A DNA stretch of 22,030 nt. Source: a virus. A program made the translations under genes and the position numbers. Positions 2,879 through 19,921 of this stretch are shown one piece after another. Under the pieces are notes generated by a model. It searched no databases and had not been told where the DNA came from. It worked only from the letters and a program-made list of their open reading frames with translations. Numbering within the stretch: position 1 is the stretch's first letter; every line of letters starts with the position of its first letter. The stretch is from IMG/VR virus record IMGVR_UViG_3300043411_000490, positions 1 through 22,030 of that record; one strand, given 5' to 3'.

Positions 2879-3307
2879 ATGACAGCAGGCAGGCCAAGCG
2901 TCTATAAAGACGAGTTCGCAACGCAGGTTAAAAAGATAGCTGAACTTGGCGCAACAGACCAAGAAGTTGCTGACTTTTTCGATGTTGATGTGCGGACCGT
3001 GTATCGCTGGAAGCATGATTATCCAGAATTTTGTCAGGCCCTAAAGGTCGGCAAGGATGTTGCAGACGAACGGGTGGAGCGCAGTCTTTACCAAAAGGCC
3101 ATCGGTTACGAACAGGATGAAGTTAAGATATTCATGCCCGGTGGCGCGGAAGCCCCTGTGTATGCACCGTTCCGAGCCAAGATAGCGCCGGACACCACGG
3201 CGGCTATATTCTGGCTTAAGAACAGGCGCAGTCAGCAATGGCGCGACAAGCAGGACGTCGAACATAGCGGCGGCATCAACGTGACGATAAACAAGCCCGG
3301 TGCTTAA
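2879..3307 (+). CDS. terS: Terminase small subunit
   Basis: 142 residues. The N-terminal part is a helix-turn-helix: GRPSVYKDEFATQVKKIAEL, then ATDQEVADFFDVDVRTVYRWKHDYPEF (about residues 21-49). It is followed by the typical VERSLYQKAIGYE segment and a C-terminal FWLKNRRSQQWRDKQ. Family proteins bind the packaging site on concatemeric DNA and regulate the large subunit. GGAG lies about 10 bases before ATG 2879. The gene overlaps the large terminase by eight bases, which supports the assignment. Confidence 0.88.
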   Translation: MTAGRPSVYKDEFATQVKKIAELGATDQEVADFFDVDVRTVYRWKHDYPEFCQALKVGKDVADERVERSLYQKAIGYEQDEVKIFMPGGAEAPVYAPFRAKIAPDTTAAIFWLKNRRSQQWRDKQDVEHSGGINVTINKPGA

Positions 3308-11879: not shown

Positions 11880-12253
11880 GATTTGGATATGTGCCGTCGC
11901 CAGCAGCAGCACAACTGGAAAAGGCGCAAGAGTATCTAACCCCGGCCCTTAACCGAGGGGGTTATACTTGGGGGGAATGTGCAGGGCTAATTGATAGCAG
12001 CCATGCGCAATTGTGGATGAGCGATGAGGCCGCGCTGGTGAGTCGCAAGGATGGCGATACGCTGGAATTGTGGCTTTGCGGCGGGCGCGTCGTGAACGCT
12101 TCGGACAGGTTTTTGGAAGTGATTGAACGGGCAGCAAGGGAAAGCGGCCTTCAATGGATGCGGCTGACTGGTCGCAAAGGTTGGGACCGCCATTTGGCAA
12201 AATGGGGTTGGGTCAAGGTCGGGGAAGATTTGGTGAAGGACATCAGAACATGA
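11876..12253 (+). CDS. GNAT-like virion-associated protein
   Basis: 125 residues. The middle and end (LELWLCGGRVVNASDRFLEVIERAARESGLQWMRLTGRKGWDRHLAKWGW) resemble truncated acetyltransferase-like (GNAT) proteins encoded among internal virion genes of podoviruses. The C-terminal GRKGWxRxLAKWGW is the most telling part. Whether it binds acetyl-CoA is uncertain, because no clear full acetyl-CoA pyrophosphate loop is visible. Start and stop are both in ATGA overlaps. Confidence 0.6.
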   Translation: MRFGYVPSPAAAQLEKAQEYLTPALNRGGYTWGECAGLIDSSHAQLWMSDEAALVSRKDGDTLELWLCGGRVVNASDRFLEVIERAARESGLQWMRLTGRKGWDRHLAKWGWVKVGEDLVKDIRT

Positions 12254-13098
12254 AAAGTAAAACGGTTCAGAAGAACGATCCATGGGCACCTGCGCAGCCG
12301 TATATTTTGAAAGGCTTGGAGCAGTCTGGCCAAGTGTTCGACCAGCAGCAGCCGACGCTCAACAAATATAGCGGTATGCAGATGGATACTTATGGCCGTG
12401 TTGCGCCGGGTGCCGAACAAGGTATTATGGGCGCGCAAGGGCTGGTGAATGATACCATCGGCGGGAAATTCCTGTCCGGTAACCCCTATCTGGACGCTGT
12501 TCTAGGCCGCACTCGCGAGAATGTGGGCGATGCTGTGGCGGGTGAGTTTATGCAGGCTGGCCGCTATGGTTCGGGCTATAATCAGGCGATACTCGCCCGC
12601 GAATTGGCAGATGCTGAAAATAGCGCGCGTATGCAGGATTACAGCCGTGAGCGCGCTTATCAGAGCGATGCCGTTGGACAGGCGCAGCAGCTTATGGGCG
12701 GCTCGCAAGGTCTGTTGAACAATGCAGCGGAATTGCCTTGGATTGGGGTCGGCGCTTTGAATGGCAATGTCCGCAACGCTTCAGGCGGCTATGGCACGAC
12801 CACCACGACGCAGAAACAGGGCATGGGGGGGCTACTAGCGCAGGCCGCTGGCACGGCGCTTAGTGCTTATGCCGGTTCCGACATTCGCCTGAAAGCCAAC
12901 GTGGAAAAGGTTGGCGAATATCCCGATGGCCTTGGTATTTACGAATGGGATTATCTGCCGATTGAGGGCCGGATTGCCGCTTTTATGCCTGAAGGCCGCC
13001 AACGCGGTGTTATGGCTGACGAGGTTGCTGAACTGCGGCCCTACGCACTCGGCCCCGTCATCGAAGGCTATGCAACTGTGAACTATGGAGCACTATAA
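12250..13098 (+). CDS. Internal virion protein with C-terminal S74-type self-cleaving domain
   Basis: 282 residues from ATG 12250 (ATGA overlap). The N-terminal DPWAPAQPYILKGL pattern is typical of ejection/internal virion proteins of podoviruses. A Gly/Ala/Gln-rich helical middle follows. Residues 210-282 look like the intramolecular chaperone of endosialidase/peptidase S74: SDIRLK with Ser210 and Lys215 five apart, as in the catalytic dyad, then IYEWDY, RGVMADEVAEL and GYATVNYGAL. Such domains trimerise, fold the upstream part and then cut just before the Ser. Here cleavage would release about 73 residues. TAATG overlap with the next gene. Confidence 0.75.
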   Translation: MKSKTVQKNDPWAPAQPYILKGLEQSGQVFDQQQPTLNKYSGMQMDTYGRVAPGAEQGIMGAQGLVNDTIGGKFLSGNPYLDAVLGRTRENVGDAVAGEFMQAGRYGSGYNQAILARELADAENSARMQDYSRERAYQSDAVGQAQQLMGGSQGLLNNAAELPWIGVGALNGNVRNASGGYGTTTTTQKQGMGGLLAQAAGTALSAYAGSDIRLKANVEKVGEYPDGLGIYEWDYLPIEGRIAAFMPEGRQRGVMADEVAELRPYALGPVIEGYATVNYGAL

Positions 13099-13688
13099 TG
13101 GCGATAGGTTTCCGCACTAGCGGCATGTTCGGTAGGCCTCCTATGCAGGCCCCTCAACCGGGAACCATGCCAATTGGCGTTGAACAAATGCAGCAGAAAC
13201 CCGGCTTCTTTCAGCGCTCCGGCGTCAAGACTGCGGCAGGCATTCTAGGCGACACCTTGCTAACGCTTGGCGGTGGGCAAGCGATGTATGCGCCGATGAT
13301 GCAGCAGCGGAAATTGCAGGAAGAAGACGCGCGCATTCGCCAACAGATGTTTGAGCAAAAGCGCATTGCAGAACGCGAAGACAAGCAATGGGAATGGCAG
13401 AACAAGCCTAGGGATGAGCGAGCGCCCTACCGATGGGAGGCCAATGATGGCAGCCTGATGGAGGTCGGCCCTGATGGACAGCCCCGCCAAGTCTATAAAG
13501 ACCCAACACCTAAAACCACATATATCAGCGTTGACAATAGCGACGGCACAAAAACGGTTGTTCCTGTTGTCAACGGTCAAATTATGGGCGGCGGGCAACG
13601 TCCACAAATTGGCGCTGTAGTTGCTGACCCTCGAAAACAAGGAGGTCAGGCGGCACCCCCGCCTGCTACCTTTCGGGGCGGACTTTGA
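13098..13688 (+). CDS. Internal virion protein, upstream frame of a likely frameshifted fusion
   Basis: 196 residues in the unshifted frame. Residues 1-40 are Met/Pro/Gln-rich, 41-65 a Gly/Leu-rich apolar stretch, and 66-103 a charged coiled coil (QQRKLQEEDARIRQQMFEQK). A YRWEANDGSLMEV motif at 111-123 resembles repeats in the 972-residue virion protein nearby. A Gly/Pro/Ala-rich linker then ends in CTT TGA. The linker looks like a join to another domain rather than a natural C-terminus. A +1 shift at 13683-13686 would continue into the M15 domain, making 296 residues. TAATG sets the start at 13098. Function of the helical part is unknown; virion location is inferred from context. Confidence 0.72.
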   Translation: MAIGFRTSGMFGRPPMQAPQPGTMPIGVEQMQQKPGFFQRSGVKTAAGILGDTLLTLGGGQAMYAPMMQQRKLQEEDARIRQQMFEQKRIAEREDKQWEWQNKPRDERAPYRWEANDGSLMEVGPDGQPRQVYKDPTPKTTYISVDNSDGTKTVVPVVNGQIMGGGQRPQIGAVVADPRKQGGQAAPPPATFRGGL

Positions 13689-13989
13689 TCCTCTGAGCAC
13701 ATTCCAGCAGGCTGGGTTCCAACCGACAAGCGGCTTCAGGACGCAGGCCCACCAAGACGCGCTGAGAGCGCAAGGGCTCACAAAGACTAGCCGCAGCCAG
13801 CATACAATGGGCAATGCTGTGGACTTCGCAATTCCGCAAGGTTGGTCAAAGGCAAAGGCTCTCGAATGGGCTAAAAAACAGTATCCCGGCGCTCGCTTTG
13901 AGGCGACCAACGGAAATTCAATACACGGCACGTTCCCCGGGTGGGGGCGTGCGCCTGATGTTTCAAATTCTCGCGGAAGGTATCGCTAA
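13621..13989 (+). CDS. M15 (D-Ala-D-Ala carboxypeptidase-like) zinc peptidase domain
   Basis: The convincing part starts at 13687: DPLSTFQQAGFQPTSGFRTQAHQD, then SQHTMGNAVDF and SIHGTFPGW. SGFRT and HxxxxxxD plus a later His fit zinc ligands of M15_3/VanY-type peptidases. In fusion numbering these are His235, Asp242 and His276. These cut peptide cross-links of peptidoglycan. The frame stays open back to TTG 13621, but the residues before 13687 look non-coding (KEVRRHPRLLPFGA), TTG has no ribosome site, and the next possible start is CTG 13663. Expression by +1 frameshift from the preceding gene is the best explanation. A role in local wall opening during DNA entry is inferred. TAATG overlap with the next gene. 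Confidence 0.75.
   Translation: MLTLENKEVRRHPRLLPFGADFDPLSTFQQAGFQPTSGFRTQAHQDALRAQGLTKTSRSQHTMGNAVDFAIPQGWSKAKALEWAKKQYPGARFEATNGNSIHGTFPGWGRAPDVSNSRGRYR
13671..13690 (+). other. Candidate programmed +1 frameshift site (RF2-like CTTTGA)
   Basis: Zero-frame codons run TTT CGG GGC GGA CTT TGA TCC. In the E. coli RF2 gene (prfB) an SD-like AGGGGG lies three bases before CTT TGA and drives +1 shifting. Here GGGG (13675-13678) lies four bases before CTT TGA. After the shift, tRNA-Leu re-pairs on TTT and the next codon is GAT 13687, entering the M15 frame exactly where its homologous-looking sequence begins. Confidence 0.6.
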
Positions 13990-16907
13990 TGGCGCAATTT
14001 GTCCAAGACGGTGTTATTTATGAAGATTTGGGCGACGGCAATGTGCGTGTTGTCGGCTATGAAGACGCGCCGCAAGGTGGCCAGCCCGCGCCGATGACGT
14101 TTGGCATGCCTAAGCCTAAAGACGCGCCATCCGGCTATCGTTGGGGGCCTAATGGCGAATTGATCGCCATTCCGGGGGGGCCTGCTGACAAGCCGACTGA
14201 CAATCCGAACGCGCCCAAGTTGCCCACTGGCTATCGCTGGAAGCCAGACGGCACGGCAGAACTTATCCCCGGCGTTGCGGCCCCCGGCGCAAATGCGAAA
14301 GGTGACCCCGGCAAAGCAGGTGCTTACAATTCAGTCATTCAGCAAATCGACCGGCTTTATCAGCTTTATAATGAGGGCATTGGTTCAACTAGCGGCCTTG
14401 CAAGCGCGCTTGACTATCTTCCTTCGGACGCGAACGCAGCATTTGACACAGCGGGCGCTGCACTTGGCGATCAGGGCAATGCGGCTTTTAAGGTCCCCGG
14501 TATGGGGGCGCCATCGGATGCAGACGCAGCGCGCTTTGTTGCGGCTAACCAGCCACAATCAACTGACCGCGATGTAGCCGCGCTGGAAAAGCTGCGCGCC
14601 CTTCGCCAGCGCCTTGAATCCAATATGGCCGCCGTTGGCCTTCCTGCCCCGCAGTGGAATTATGACTTGCAGGGCAAGCCTGCAACCCAAGACGCCCGCA
14701 TGCCGGAAATGACAGGCGGCTTGCCGACCGGAACGGATATTCAATTTAATTACGCCAAGCCAGACGGCGGCTTTGACCGCAATGCTTGGCTGCAAGCTAA
14801 TTTCGGCATTTCTCCAGACCAAGAAGCACAGATTACTGCATTCATGCGCGCTAATCGTGGCAACCCGAATTTCCGTTACGAGAACTTGCGCGACTATTAT
14901 CAAGCCATTGGTGCGCCTGCACCGCAGCGCGATGACGCGACAATTGAAGCCATCCGCAGCGGCAACGCAAATGTCACCGGCTATGATAGTTCGCAAGCGG
15001 AAGCCGCTTACAATCAAGCCCTTCAGCAGCGCGTCCGCGAGCGCGACACGACGCTTGGCGCGGTTGACACTGTAGGCCGCACTGCCGCCAATGCTTTCTT
15101 TGGCGCTGGTGATCGTGTAGCTGCAGCCTTTGGGCCGGATGACTACGCCACCAACCTTGCAGCGCAGCGGTTTGAAACTGACGCGGCACGACAAGCCAAC
15201 CCAATTGCGGCTTTTGGCGGTGATGTTGCTGGCCTGCTGGCTGGAACCTATACAACCGGCGCAACGGCACAAAATCTTGCAACCCGATTTGCGCCCGGCC
15301 TTGCCCGTCAAGGAGCATGGGGTAGCAGTGTAACGCGCAACCTTGCAAACGATGCCGCCTACGCAACCGGACTTGCGGCCATTAACGACCAAAACCCATA
15401 CGCTGCGGGAGCCTTAGCCGTTGGCGGCAGCGCAGCAGGGCAACTTATTGGCGCACCTGTCGGCAAGGCGCTTGCTAACACCATGCAATCATCCCCGACC
15501 GCTATGCGGGCTGTTAACAGCCTTGGGGGTATGTTTGGAGCGCGTCAAAAGCCAACCTTACCGGAAATGTCCACAGCGCAGCGCATAATGGTTGATGCAG
15601 TTGGAGATCGTGGCCCGCAAGTGTTGAACAACTTGCAGCAGGCCGCGCAGATGGGTGTTCCCATGTCCTTAGCTGACGCGGACACCGGACTAACCGCGCT
15701 TGGTGGTCAGGTTGTTCGTCGTTCGCCTGACGCTCGCAACATCGCTATCAATGCCTTTGAGCCTCGCGCACAGGGACAATATGACCGACTTGTGGGCGCA
15801 GTGGAACGCAACTTCGGGCCGGTTGCCAACATTCCGCAGCGTAGCGAAGACCTAATCCAGCAAGCCCGCACCGCAGCGCGCCCGCTTTACGAGCCGCTGG
15901 AAAACATGCCGCCCCGCACTTCGCCTGCATTAGACGAAATGCTAAACACAAATACCGGCATTAACGCCATGCGCAATGCTACGCAAATTGCTGATGCAGA
16001 CCAAGTGCCTGCGGGGGTGATGAATATCGGGACTGATGCGGCAGGCAACCCAACCTTTACCGCAACACCAAACTTTCAAACGCTGAATTACGTCAAGCAA
16101 GGCTTCGACCGCTCACTAGAAGCGTATCGCAACCCCATTACGCGGCAGCTTGACCTTTCCGGCGATCCGCTTGCTCGTGCAACAGAAGGGCTTCGCGGTC
16201 GCTTTGTTTCGGAAATGGACAACCTATATCCGGGCTACGCCGAAGCCCGTGCGGCCTATGCAGGCCCCGCTGGTGAACGTCAGGCTTTTCAGCAGGGCGT
16301 CAGTGCTCGCAATATGACACCGGATAGCATGGCTTATGCGATTAAAGACATGCCAGACCCTCGCCTAGAACAATTCCGGTTGGGCCGAATTTCCGATATT
16401 GTCGATCAGGCAGGCAAGGTTAAATACGCCTCTAATCCTTGGAATAGCGTTGTCGGTTCGCCTTCCGAGCAGCAGCGCCTTGCTTTGCTTTACCCTGAAA
16501 ACGCGCCTAGCTTCATTAAGCAATACCAATTGGAGCGCGACATTGCCCGTTCGCAAAATGCTATTCTTGGTGGCAGCCCCACAGCAGAGCGGCAATTGAT
16601 GGATCAGGCTTTTCAAGGCAATCTTGCTGGCGACATTGCACTAGATGCAATGACCACAGGCGCACCGATTAAAAGTGGCATCAATATCCTTGGACGCCTT
16701 AGCAAAGATGAATTGGGCCGCATCGGCGCTGAAAAGAAGGCAAAGGAACTTGCGCCAATCCTGTTCGATACAGACGCTGCGAAGGCTGCTGCGGCGTTCC
16801 GCAAATCCAAAAAAGCCAAAAAGGCTCGCGGCATGTTTGGCCGACGCGGCGCTAGGGCTGGTGCGTCAGTTGTTTCTGCCCCGATTGTGGCGAGCGGCAA
16901 CGAATGA
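13989..16907 (+). CDS. Large internal virion / DNA ejection protein
   Basis: 972 residues, the largest protein here. Two tandem N-terminal repeats, SGYRWGPNGELIAIPG (48-63) and TGYRWKPDGTAELIPG (80-95), match a motif seen at the start of many phage virion proteins. A long Ala/Gly-rich middle (about 355-510) contains apolar stretches (AFGGDVAGLLAGTYTTGATA, GALAVGGSAAGQLIGAPVG) that could insert into a membrane. The rest is helical, and the C-terminus is very basic (KSKKAKKARGMFGRRGARAG). The size, position and composition suit an internal protein ejected with the DNA to form a conduit across the envelope. No transglycosylase motif is visible. TAATG decides the start. Confidence 0.72.
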   Translation: MAQFVQDGVIYEDLGDGNVRVVGYEDAPQGGQPAPMTFGMPKPKDAPSGYRWGPNGELIAIPGGPADKPTDNPNAPKLPTGYRWKPDGTAELIPGVAAPGANAKGDPGKAGAYNSVIQQIDRLYQLYNEGIGSTSGLASALDYLPSDANAAFDTAGAALGDQGNAAFKVPGMGAPSDADAARFVAANQPQSTDRDVAALEKLRALRQRLESNMAAVGLPAPQWNYDLQGKPATQDARMPEMTGGLPTGTDIQFNYAKPDGGFDRNAWLQANFGISPDQEAQITAFMRANRGNPNFRYENLRDYYQAIGAPAPQRDDATIEAIRSGNANVTGYDSSQAEAAYNQALQQRVRERDTTLGAVDTVGRTAANAFFGAGDRVAAAFGPDDYATNLAAQRFETDAARQANPIAAFGGDVAGLLAGTYTTGATAQNLATRFAPGLARQGAWGSSVTRNLANDAAYATGLAAINDQNPYAAGALAVGGSAAGQLIGAPVGKALANTMQSSPTAMRAVNSLGGMFGARQKPTLPEMSTAQRIMVDAVGDRGPQVLNNLQQAAQMGVPMSLADADTGLTALGGQVVRRSPDARNIAINAFEPRAQGQYDRLVGAVERNFGPVANIPQRSEDLIQQARTAARPLYEPLENMPPRTSPALDEMLNTNTGINAMRNATQIADADQVPAGVMNIGTDAAGNPTFTATPNFQTLNYVKQGFDRSLEAYRNPITRQLDLSGDPLARATEGLRGRFVSEMDNLYPGYAEARAAYAGPAGERQAFQQGVSARNMTPDSMAYAIKDMPDPRLEQFRLGRISDIVDQAGKVKYASNPWNSVVGSPSEQQRLALLYPENAPSFIKQYQLERDIARSQNAILGGSPTAERQLMDQAFQGNLAGDIALDAMTTGAPIKSGINILGRLSKDELGRIGAEKKAKELAPILFDTDAAKAAAAFRKSKKAKKARGMFGRRGARAGASVVSAPIVASGNE

Positions 16908-19168: not shown

Positions 19169-19313
19169 CGCGCTGGAAGTGCGGTTGACTGACAAGTTTT
19201 ATCGGGATGTCGGCAAGGGCTTTTGGGGCTTTGTCTGGAAGGGCGTTGTAACGGGAATGCTGTTTCTGGCAGCCCTTGGCGCGATGAAATACGGGGTAGG
19301 GGGGCAGCAATGA
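19128..19313 (+). CDS. Small single-helix membrane protein of the lysis cassette
   Basis: 61 residues from GTG 19128, chosen because GGAGG lies about five bases upstream and GTGA overlaps the previous stop. The N-terminal part is acidic and helical (NLSDEDVTAIVDALEVRLTD). A single membrane segment lies at about 33-53 (GFVWKGVVTGMLFLAALGAM). ATGA overlap with the endolysin gene. Comparable small proteins occur before endolysins in alphaproteobacterial phages (from memory). A holin or antiholin role is possible but unproven. Confidence 0.65.
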   Translation: MRNLSDEDVTAIVDALEVRLTDKFYRDVGKGFWGFVWKGVVTGMLFLAALGAMKYGVGGQQ

Positions 19314-19921
19314 AACGACCGTCTAAATTCTTCGACGCTTGCCGCGCTGGCATCATGGGGCCGACGCTGGACAATGACGAGGTATCAGGCGCAAATGCCA
19401 TTCTGGAGGCCATGCTAGGGCTTCCTGTGGCATGGACAGCCTACGCCTTAGCGACAGCTTGGCACGAAACGGCGCACACGTTGCAGCCTATCAAGGAATA
19501 TGGTGGCGATAGGTATTTTACCCGCATGTATGATATAACCGGCGCGCGTCCATCGCTTGCTAAGAGCATGGGGAATATGACCGCTGGCGACGGGCCTAAA
19601 TACTGTGGGCGCGGCTATGTGCAGCTAACTTGGAAGTCGAACTACGCAAAGGCAGGCCAGAAGCTAGGCGTCGATCTGGTAGGCAATCCAGGCCTTGCAA
19701 TGGACCGCAACATAGCGGCTGGCATTTTACGACATGGTATGCGCGAAGGCTGGTTTACCGGCAAGTCATTCCAAAGCTACTTGCCCGCCGCTGGTCTGGC
19801 GACAAAAGACCAATTCACAGCCGCGCGTCGGATTATCAATGGCACTGACAAGGCAAGCCTGATTGCTGGCTATGCAATGCAGTTTCAAGCGGCTCTGGTG
19901 GCAGGGGAGTGGGAAACATGA
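19310..19921 (+). CDS. Endolysin, GH19 chitinase/lysozyme-like
   Basis: 203 residues from ATG 19310 (ATGA overlap; a longer frame upstream lies in the previous gene). Signature parts are WTAYALATAWHETAHTLQPI with Glu53, the likely catalytic acid in the HETAHT motif, then IKEYGG (Glu63) and YCGRGYVQLTWKSNY (98-112), which matches the GH19 GRGxxQLT consensus. It cuts glycan strands of peptidoglycan at the end of infection. There is no signal peptide or membrane anchor at the N-terminus, so it should need a holin to reach the wall. Neighbouring small membrane proteins are candidates for that role. Confidence 0.88.
   Translation: MKRPSKFFDACRAGIMGPTLDNDEVSGANAILEAMLGLPVAWTAYALATAWHETAHTLQPIKEYGGDRYFTRMYDITGARPSLAKSMGNMTAGDGPKYCGRGYVQLTWKSNYAKAGQKLGVDLVGNPGLAMDRNIAAGILRHGMREGWFTGKSFQSYLPAAGLATKDQFTAARRIINGTDKASLIAGYAMQFQAALVAGEWET

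What the first reader, a model, noticed from the sequence alone, without database searches (positions are those of the whole stretch)
13098..13989. Candidate RF2-like +1 programmed frameshift fusing a virion protein to an M15 peptidase
Seen: the upstream frame ends CTT TGA, with GGGG four bases before CTT. The M15 domain lies in the +1 frame and its recognisable sequence begins at 13687, exactly the first codon after a +1 slip. The M15 frame has no ATG, GTG or ribosome-site-linked start before the domain. Known: bacterial prfB uses AGGGGG, three bases, CTT TGA for +1 shifting. Inference: the phage uses the same mechanism to make a 296-residue minority product carrying a peptidoglycan-cleaving domain, so particles hold a set ratio of plain and enzyme-tipped protein. 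The shift could also sense release factor 2 levels in the host. I know of no described case for this gene pair.
Basis: partly seen in the sequence, partly recalled or inferred. Interest (0 to 1): 0.85.

Follow-up and report, generated by a model that had tools for sequence, protein, structure and literature searches.

The report
Phage frameshift signal adding wall-cutting enzymes
A family of phages appears to make some copies of one particle protein with a cell-wall-cutting enzyme attached, by a conserved RNA signal (a ribosome-binding-like sequence, a hairpin and the letters UUUC) that makes some ribosomes skip one letter; I found no earlier description of this signal.

Summary
In the window a virion-protein ORF (13098-13688) is followed in the +1 frame by an M15 peptidase domain. 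Judged by frame alone, 58 of 58 related loci with an enzyme in the +1 frame carry one conserved element; none of 38 in-frame or own-start loci does. The element is GGAGG, an abutting hairpin, 4-5 nt, then UUU followed by C (71/76) or U (5/76). CTT-TGA occurs only in this window (1 of 76). The hairpin covaries in all 7 pairs of its main class; 70 of 76 elements have at least 6 bp against 4.4% of control windows. A search for the RNA pattern alone found 40 viral stretches; 36 have an upstream ORF and a +1 ORF of 80-130 aa, several matching SLT or M15_3 families. Best explanation: programmed +1 frameshifting at UUU-C by tRNA-Phe, stimulated by the SD-like sequence and the upstream hairpin, yields a minority virion protein tipped with a peptidoglycan hydrolase. 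This rests on comparative sequence only; no protein or efficiency data exist. The parts are known; I found no report of this natural combination.

The parts
13098..13688 (+). 0-frame ORF: small virion (ejection-type) protein, 196 aa to the UGA at 13686-13688
   Evidence: relatives with the same N-terminus
13639..13645 (+). AAGGAGG, Shine-Dalgarno-like; GGA GGN in the 0-frame
   Evidence: GGA codon in all 76 elements (part of the search definition) against 10% of upstream Gly codons; 58/58 loci called +1 by frame alone
13646..13665 (+). hairpin: 7 bp (13647-13653 with 13659-13665), 5-nt loop 13654-13658
   Evidence: covariation in relatives; stem statistics; fold
13671..13674 (+). UUU-C, proposed +1 slip site (P-site UUU to UUC)
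13675..13989 (+). +1-frame M15 peptidase domain (104 codons after the slip, TAA at 13987-13989)
13686..13688 (+). 0-frame UGA ending the unshifted product
13989..16907 (+). next virion gene (972 aa, phrog_5880); its ATG overlaps the enzyme stop (TAATG)
12154..13098 (+). preceding virion/DNA-ejection gene (phrog_6121/4287, S74-like end)
19223..19921 (+). separate GH19-type endolysin gene, so the M15 domain is not needed as the lysis enzyme

Best explanation
Most ribosomes translate the virion protein and stop a few codons after UUU. A fraction slip forward one base when UUU (window 13671-13673) is in the P site: tRNA-Phe re-pairs from UUU to UUC and reading continues in the +1 frame, adding a roughly 100-residue peptidoglycan hydrolase (M15 here) to the C-terminus (296 aa in this window). 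Two upstream elements act as stimulators: an SD-like GGAGG that can pair with 16S rRNA of the elongating ribosome, and a hairpin that refolds right behind the E site. When the hairpin is folded, GGAGG lies only 4-6 nt from UUU, close to the 3-nt spacing of prfB, so hairpin folding and SD pairing would both push the ribosome forward. The result would be particles carrying mostly plain and some enzyme-tipped copies, useful for crossing the cell wall during DNA entry. Shown here by comparative sequence: conserved frame relation, conserved element, hairpin covariation, coding constraint in both frames. Inferred: slip codon, stimulator roles, product ratio, incorporation into virions.
For: All 58 loci called +1 by frame alone carry the element, 0 of 38 in-frame/own-start loci do. 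76 distinct elements: GGAGG-to-UUU distance 22, 25 or 28 nt with stem or loop absorbing the change; 70/76 stems of 6 bp or more against 4.4% of control windows. Covariation: class A 93.6% of cells paired, 7/7 pairs with double changes, 47 double-change cells against 14.5 shuffled; class B 100% paired, 7/8 pairs. The fourth base is C in 71 (UUU to UUC, better pairing); the 5 with U are all UUU followed directly by a stop codon. Substitutions fall on codon position 3 of the 0-frame upstream (65/79) and of the +1 frame downstream (1735/2550). A protein-blind RNA pattern search found 40 stretches: 36 with a +1 ORF of 80-130 aa, 2 cut by the stored end, 2 in frame; it hits 3 of 398 Sphingomonadales genomes, all +1, with no hit of the reversed pattern. 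The covariance model has no off-target hit in 467 kb. No shared start codon in the enzyme frame. Precedents: an upstream hairpin stimulates +1 in a 70S system (PMC6321510); UUU_C slips by tRNA-Phe (PMC3498833).
Against: No fusion peptide, reporter assay or virion proteome is available. The 4-6 nt loop-out spacing is not the 3 nt known for prfB. Six of 76 elements have stems under 6 bp by the simple measure, some with bulges. In a longer window context the folded minimum is not unusual (z -0.25). The only engineered upstream-hairpin result in 70S needed absence of RF2 at CUUUGA (PMC6321510).
Confidence: 0.87

Rival explanations
1. RF2-like +1 shift at CTT TGA (13683-13688), as first proposed.
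For: CTT TGA and GGGG are present; both sites predict a product of the same length.
Against: Found in 1 of 76 elements; relatives with TTT TGA or TTT CGG TAG cannot use it; it would lose the DF residues that precede DP in most M15 relatives.
Confidence: 0.03
2. The enzyme is made as a separate protein by internal or coupled initiation, with GGAGG as its ribosome-binding site.
For: Strong GGAGG; in some loci (L018, L024, L047) a GTG lies close behind it.
Against: No conserved start codon: L039, L046 and L061 have none and L068 is open only 7 codons upstream of the slip without a start there; the window has only a TTG upstream of the SD. It would not explain the in-frame TTT, the TTTC bias or the fixed distance to UUU.
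Confidence: 0.05
3. A real recoding event at the same place but by another route: -2 slip, short bypass, or slip at the codon before UUU.
For: The same reading frame would result (inference from the frames).
Against: tRNA re-pairing is good only for UUU to UUC/UUU at +1; codons before UUU vary (GGC, ACC, AAC, AGC, GGG).
Confidence: 0.05
4. Sequencing errors, pseudogenes or unrelated neighbouring frames.
For: A few loci (L034, L058, L163, L182) have the enzyme in the 0-frame, so indels do occur.
Against: Same frame relation in dozens of contigs and in prophages of sequenced genomes; both frames under coding constraint.
Confidence: 0.005

Closest known systems
Bacterial prfB (RF2) +1 programmed frameshift
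   Same: +1 direction, internal Shine-Dalgarno-like stimulator, P-site tRNA re-pairing
   Different: Slip at UUU-Y not CUU-UGA; no stop codon directly after the slip codon in 71/76; hairpin between SD and slip site; structural and enzyme product, not autoregulation
UUU_C +1 frameshift class (influenza A PA-X, amalgaviruses; PMC3498833, PMC5009743)
   Same: Same slip tetranucleotide and tRNA-Phe logic
   Different: Eukaryotic ribosomes and no evident stimulators in PA-X; here bacterial, with SD and hairpin
Engineered upstream-hairpin +1 stimulation in 70S (PMC6321510) and the T4 gene 60 5' stem-loop (PMC5009743)
   Same: Hairpin refolding behind the ribosome is thought to move it forward
   Different: The first is artificial, the second serves a long bypass; here it is natural, conserved and next to an SD
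Listeria phage PSA +1 frameshifts in capsid and tail genes (PMC5009743)
   Same: Phage structural proteins with two C-termini by +1 shift
   Different: Proline codon with downstream pseudoknot or stop; no enzyme domain added (the last point from own knowledge)
Virion lysozymes such as Bordetella phage BPP-1 Bbp11
   Same: Peptidoglycan hydrolase in the structural cassette
   Different: Made as an ordinary separate gene there, or as in-frame fusions in other contigs

Membership tests
Programmed +1 ribosomal frameshift signal | Conserved +1 relation between two coding frames | tested here: met
Programmed +1 ribosomal frameshift signal | P-site codon whose tRNA can re-pair one base on | tested here: met
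   UUU-C 71/76, UUU-U 5/76
Programmed +1 ribosomal frameshift signal | Conserved candidate stimulator next to the slip site | tested here: met
   GGAGG and covarying hairpin at constant distance
Programmed +1 ribosomal frameshift signal | Fusion product detected | not testable with these tools
   No proteome or reporter data
RF2 (prfB)-type frameshift | CUU UGA slip site conserved | tested here: not met
   1 of 76
RF2 (prfB)-type frameshift | SD-like sequence 3 nt before the slip codon | tested here: not met
   22-28 nt in sequence, 4-6 nt only if the hairpin is looped out
UUU_C +1 class | UUU_C tetranucleotide at the frame change | tested here: met
   71 of 76
UUU_C +1 class | Slow A-site codon or stop | tested here: inconclusive
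   CCN/CGN enriched and all UUU-U sites followed by stop; decoding rates unknown
M15 peptidase | Sequence similarity to the Pfam M15 family | tested here: inconclusive
   PF13539 E 7.9e-5, below the curated cut-off
M15 peptidase | M15 fold | tested here: met
   Model pLDDT 94; best structural matches are M15-type enzymes LysECD7 (Z 7.3) and ChiX, though Z is under 8
Known RNA family (Rfam 15) | Match to any covariance model | tested here: not met

The most novel reading that the evidence does not exclude
A modular recoding cassette in which a hairpin between a Shine-Dalgarno sequence and the slip codon folds during elongation, bringing the SD to frameshift-active spacing and driving a +1 slip at UUU-C. 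Phages have combined this one signal with many different cell-wall enzymes and virion proteins.
Probability: 0.55. Interest if true: 0.92.

Novelty: new variant of a known kind. Interest (0 to 1): 0.85.

Why it matters
It would be a natural bacterial +1 frameshift signal that combines an SD-like sequence with an upstream hairpin, an effect of hairpins that I found shown only with engineered constructs, and a bacterial counterpart of the UUU_C class. It suggests how phages could set a plain-to-enzyme ratio in the particle, explains hydrolase-like frames that lack start codons, and gives a compact, mutable system for asking how mRNA behind the ribosome moves the reading frame.

Tried and rejected
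RF2-like CTTTGA: not conserved. Independent start for the enzyme: no shared start codon. Known isolates: tblastn of the window's M15 and virion protein gave nothing in 50,697 phage records at the thresholds used (only weak hits at E up to 10); the SLT query found only distant relatives, of which BPP-1, a second Bordetella phage and a Brevundimonas phage were opened and show ordinary separate genes; the 34-nt element gave only weak chance-like hits in phages and plasmids (Caulobacter phage S2B was opened, and not pursued). A profile search with the SLT alignment in Sphingomonadales genomes returned long ORFs that look like cellular transglycosylases. A class-B DNA pattern scan was mis-spaced and hit unrelated genes. 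The class-A covariance model does not find class-B elements. An alignment of the virion N-termini was too divergent to scan with. Sequence-profile search of the PDB with the M15 alignment found nothing. Literature searches found no report of this element; subscription papers, including Schwartz and Curran 1997 on UUU-pyrimidine sites, were not readable.

Full report
What is there. The window is a 22-kb viral record with terminase, portal, major head, tail and virion genes in order. ORF 13098-13688 (196 aa) ends CTT TGA; an M15-type domain follows in the +1 frame to 13989, where the next virion gene starts on the overlapping ATG. The +1 domain folds confidently (pLDDT 94) and its best structural matches are M15-type enzymes such as LysECD7 and ChiX, with Z values under 8. 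A separate GH19-type endolysin lies at 19223-19921, so a virion role for the M15 domain is more likely than lysis; that is inference.

Relatives. Eight viral contigs with the same M15 domain all have it in +1 relative to an upstream ORF, but their 0-frame ends differ: TTT TGA, TTT CGC GGC TGA, TTT CGG TAG. CTT TGA is therefore not the shared signal. Wider searches brought in further M15 loci, SLT transglycosylase loci and a second M15 type. One locus is a prophage of Pelagerythrobacter marinus H32, which belongs to the Sphingomonadales (own knowledge).

The element. In these +1 loci the 0-frame reads GGA GGN, then a hairpin, then TTT followed by C or T. The distance from GGAGG to TTT is 25 nt (62), 22 (7) or 28 (7) in 76 distinct elements, with stem or loop taking up the difference while the hairpin mostly abuts GGAGG and ends 4-5 nt before TTT. 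Stems of 6 bp or more occur in 70 of 76 elements against 4.4% of 13,050 windows from the same ORFs. In 29 class A sequences 93.6% of cells pair and all 7 pairs show changes on both sides (47 cells, 14.5 in shuffles); in 9 class B sequences 100% pair and 7 of 8 pairs covary; sliding the partner destroys this. In the window: AAGGAGG 13639-13645, stem 13647-13653/13659-13665, TTTC 13671-13674.

Association. Classifying loci by frame only, 58 of 58 '+1' loci have the element and 0 of 38 in-frame or own-start loci have it in the +1 arrangement (L034 and L058, in-frame, keep a remnant); three loci where the enzyme would need -1 lack it. Five further element-bearing loci were put in the in-frame class only because their enzyme frame happens to be long. 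The element definition requires GGAGG and TTTY, so the 100% figures for those letters within the 76 are by construction; the 58/58 figure is the unbiased one. Some of these loci are near-identical contigs, so they are not all independent. Around the junction, substitutions between close pairs sit on third positions of the 0-frame before GGAGG (65 of 79) and of the +1 frame after UUU (1735 of 2550).

Protein-blind test. The DNA pattern for the commonest stem, searched in 2.9 million viral contigs, gave 40 stretches, some of them contigs already known. All have a 0-frame ORF of 167 codons or more upstream; 36 have a +1 ORF of 80-130 aa, two are cut by the stored end (L173, L181) and two have the enzyme in the 0-frame (L163, L182). 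Of ten downstream ORFs scanned, SLT was found in three (one below cut-off), Peptidase_M15_3 in four, and three had no Pfam match. The pattern occurs in 3 of 398 genomes of the order of P. marinus, each with a +1 enzyme, and the reversed control pattern in none.

Mechanism. UUU and UUC are read by one tRNA-Phe that pairs better with UUC, so UUU-C favours a +1 P-site slip (PMC3498833). Here 71 of 76 have C; the 5 with U are all followed directly by a stop, a slow A-site codon. Upstream hairpins next to the site stimulate +1 in an E. coli 70S system to about 60% of an SD (PMC6321510), and SD spacing for +1 is 3 nt (PMC5009743). With the hairpin looped out the SD here lies 4-6 nt from UUU. The combined push model is inference. 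Efficiency, product ratio and virion incorporation are unknown.

Alternatives are listed with confidences. Loci where the enzyme is fused in frame or has its own start, and three with a -1 arrangement at C_CCU_UUY, suggest that a linked enzyme is selected by several routes.

Noticed in passing
L031, L055, L075 around 2950-3010: Enzyme lies in -1 relative to the upstream ORF at CCCUUUC/CCCUUUU (classic X_XXY_YYZ) with GGGAGG upstream: possible -1 version of the same fusion.
   Followed up: partly
L034 (L010), L058, L163, L182: Element or remnant present but the enzyme is in the 0-frame: natural in-frame fusions or assembly indels.
   Followed up: partly
L018 and L019 (one 50.8-kb contig); L058 and L176 (one 86-kb contig): Two copies of the module on a single contig.
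   Followed up: no
L157:1353-1685, L158, L175: +1 enzyme type NNPGALRVPG... (L157 and L175 without a Pfam match); candidate unassigned cell-wall enzyme.
   Followed up: no
L161:5151-5531: +1 ORF resembling an M23 peptidase by eye only; no Pfam match.
   Followed up: no
L035, L078, L079, L088, L094, L103, L108, L114: SLT domain embedded in one long in-frame virion protein with a further C-terminal part.
   Followed up: partly
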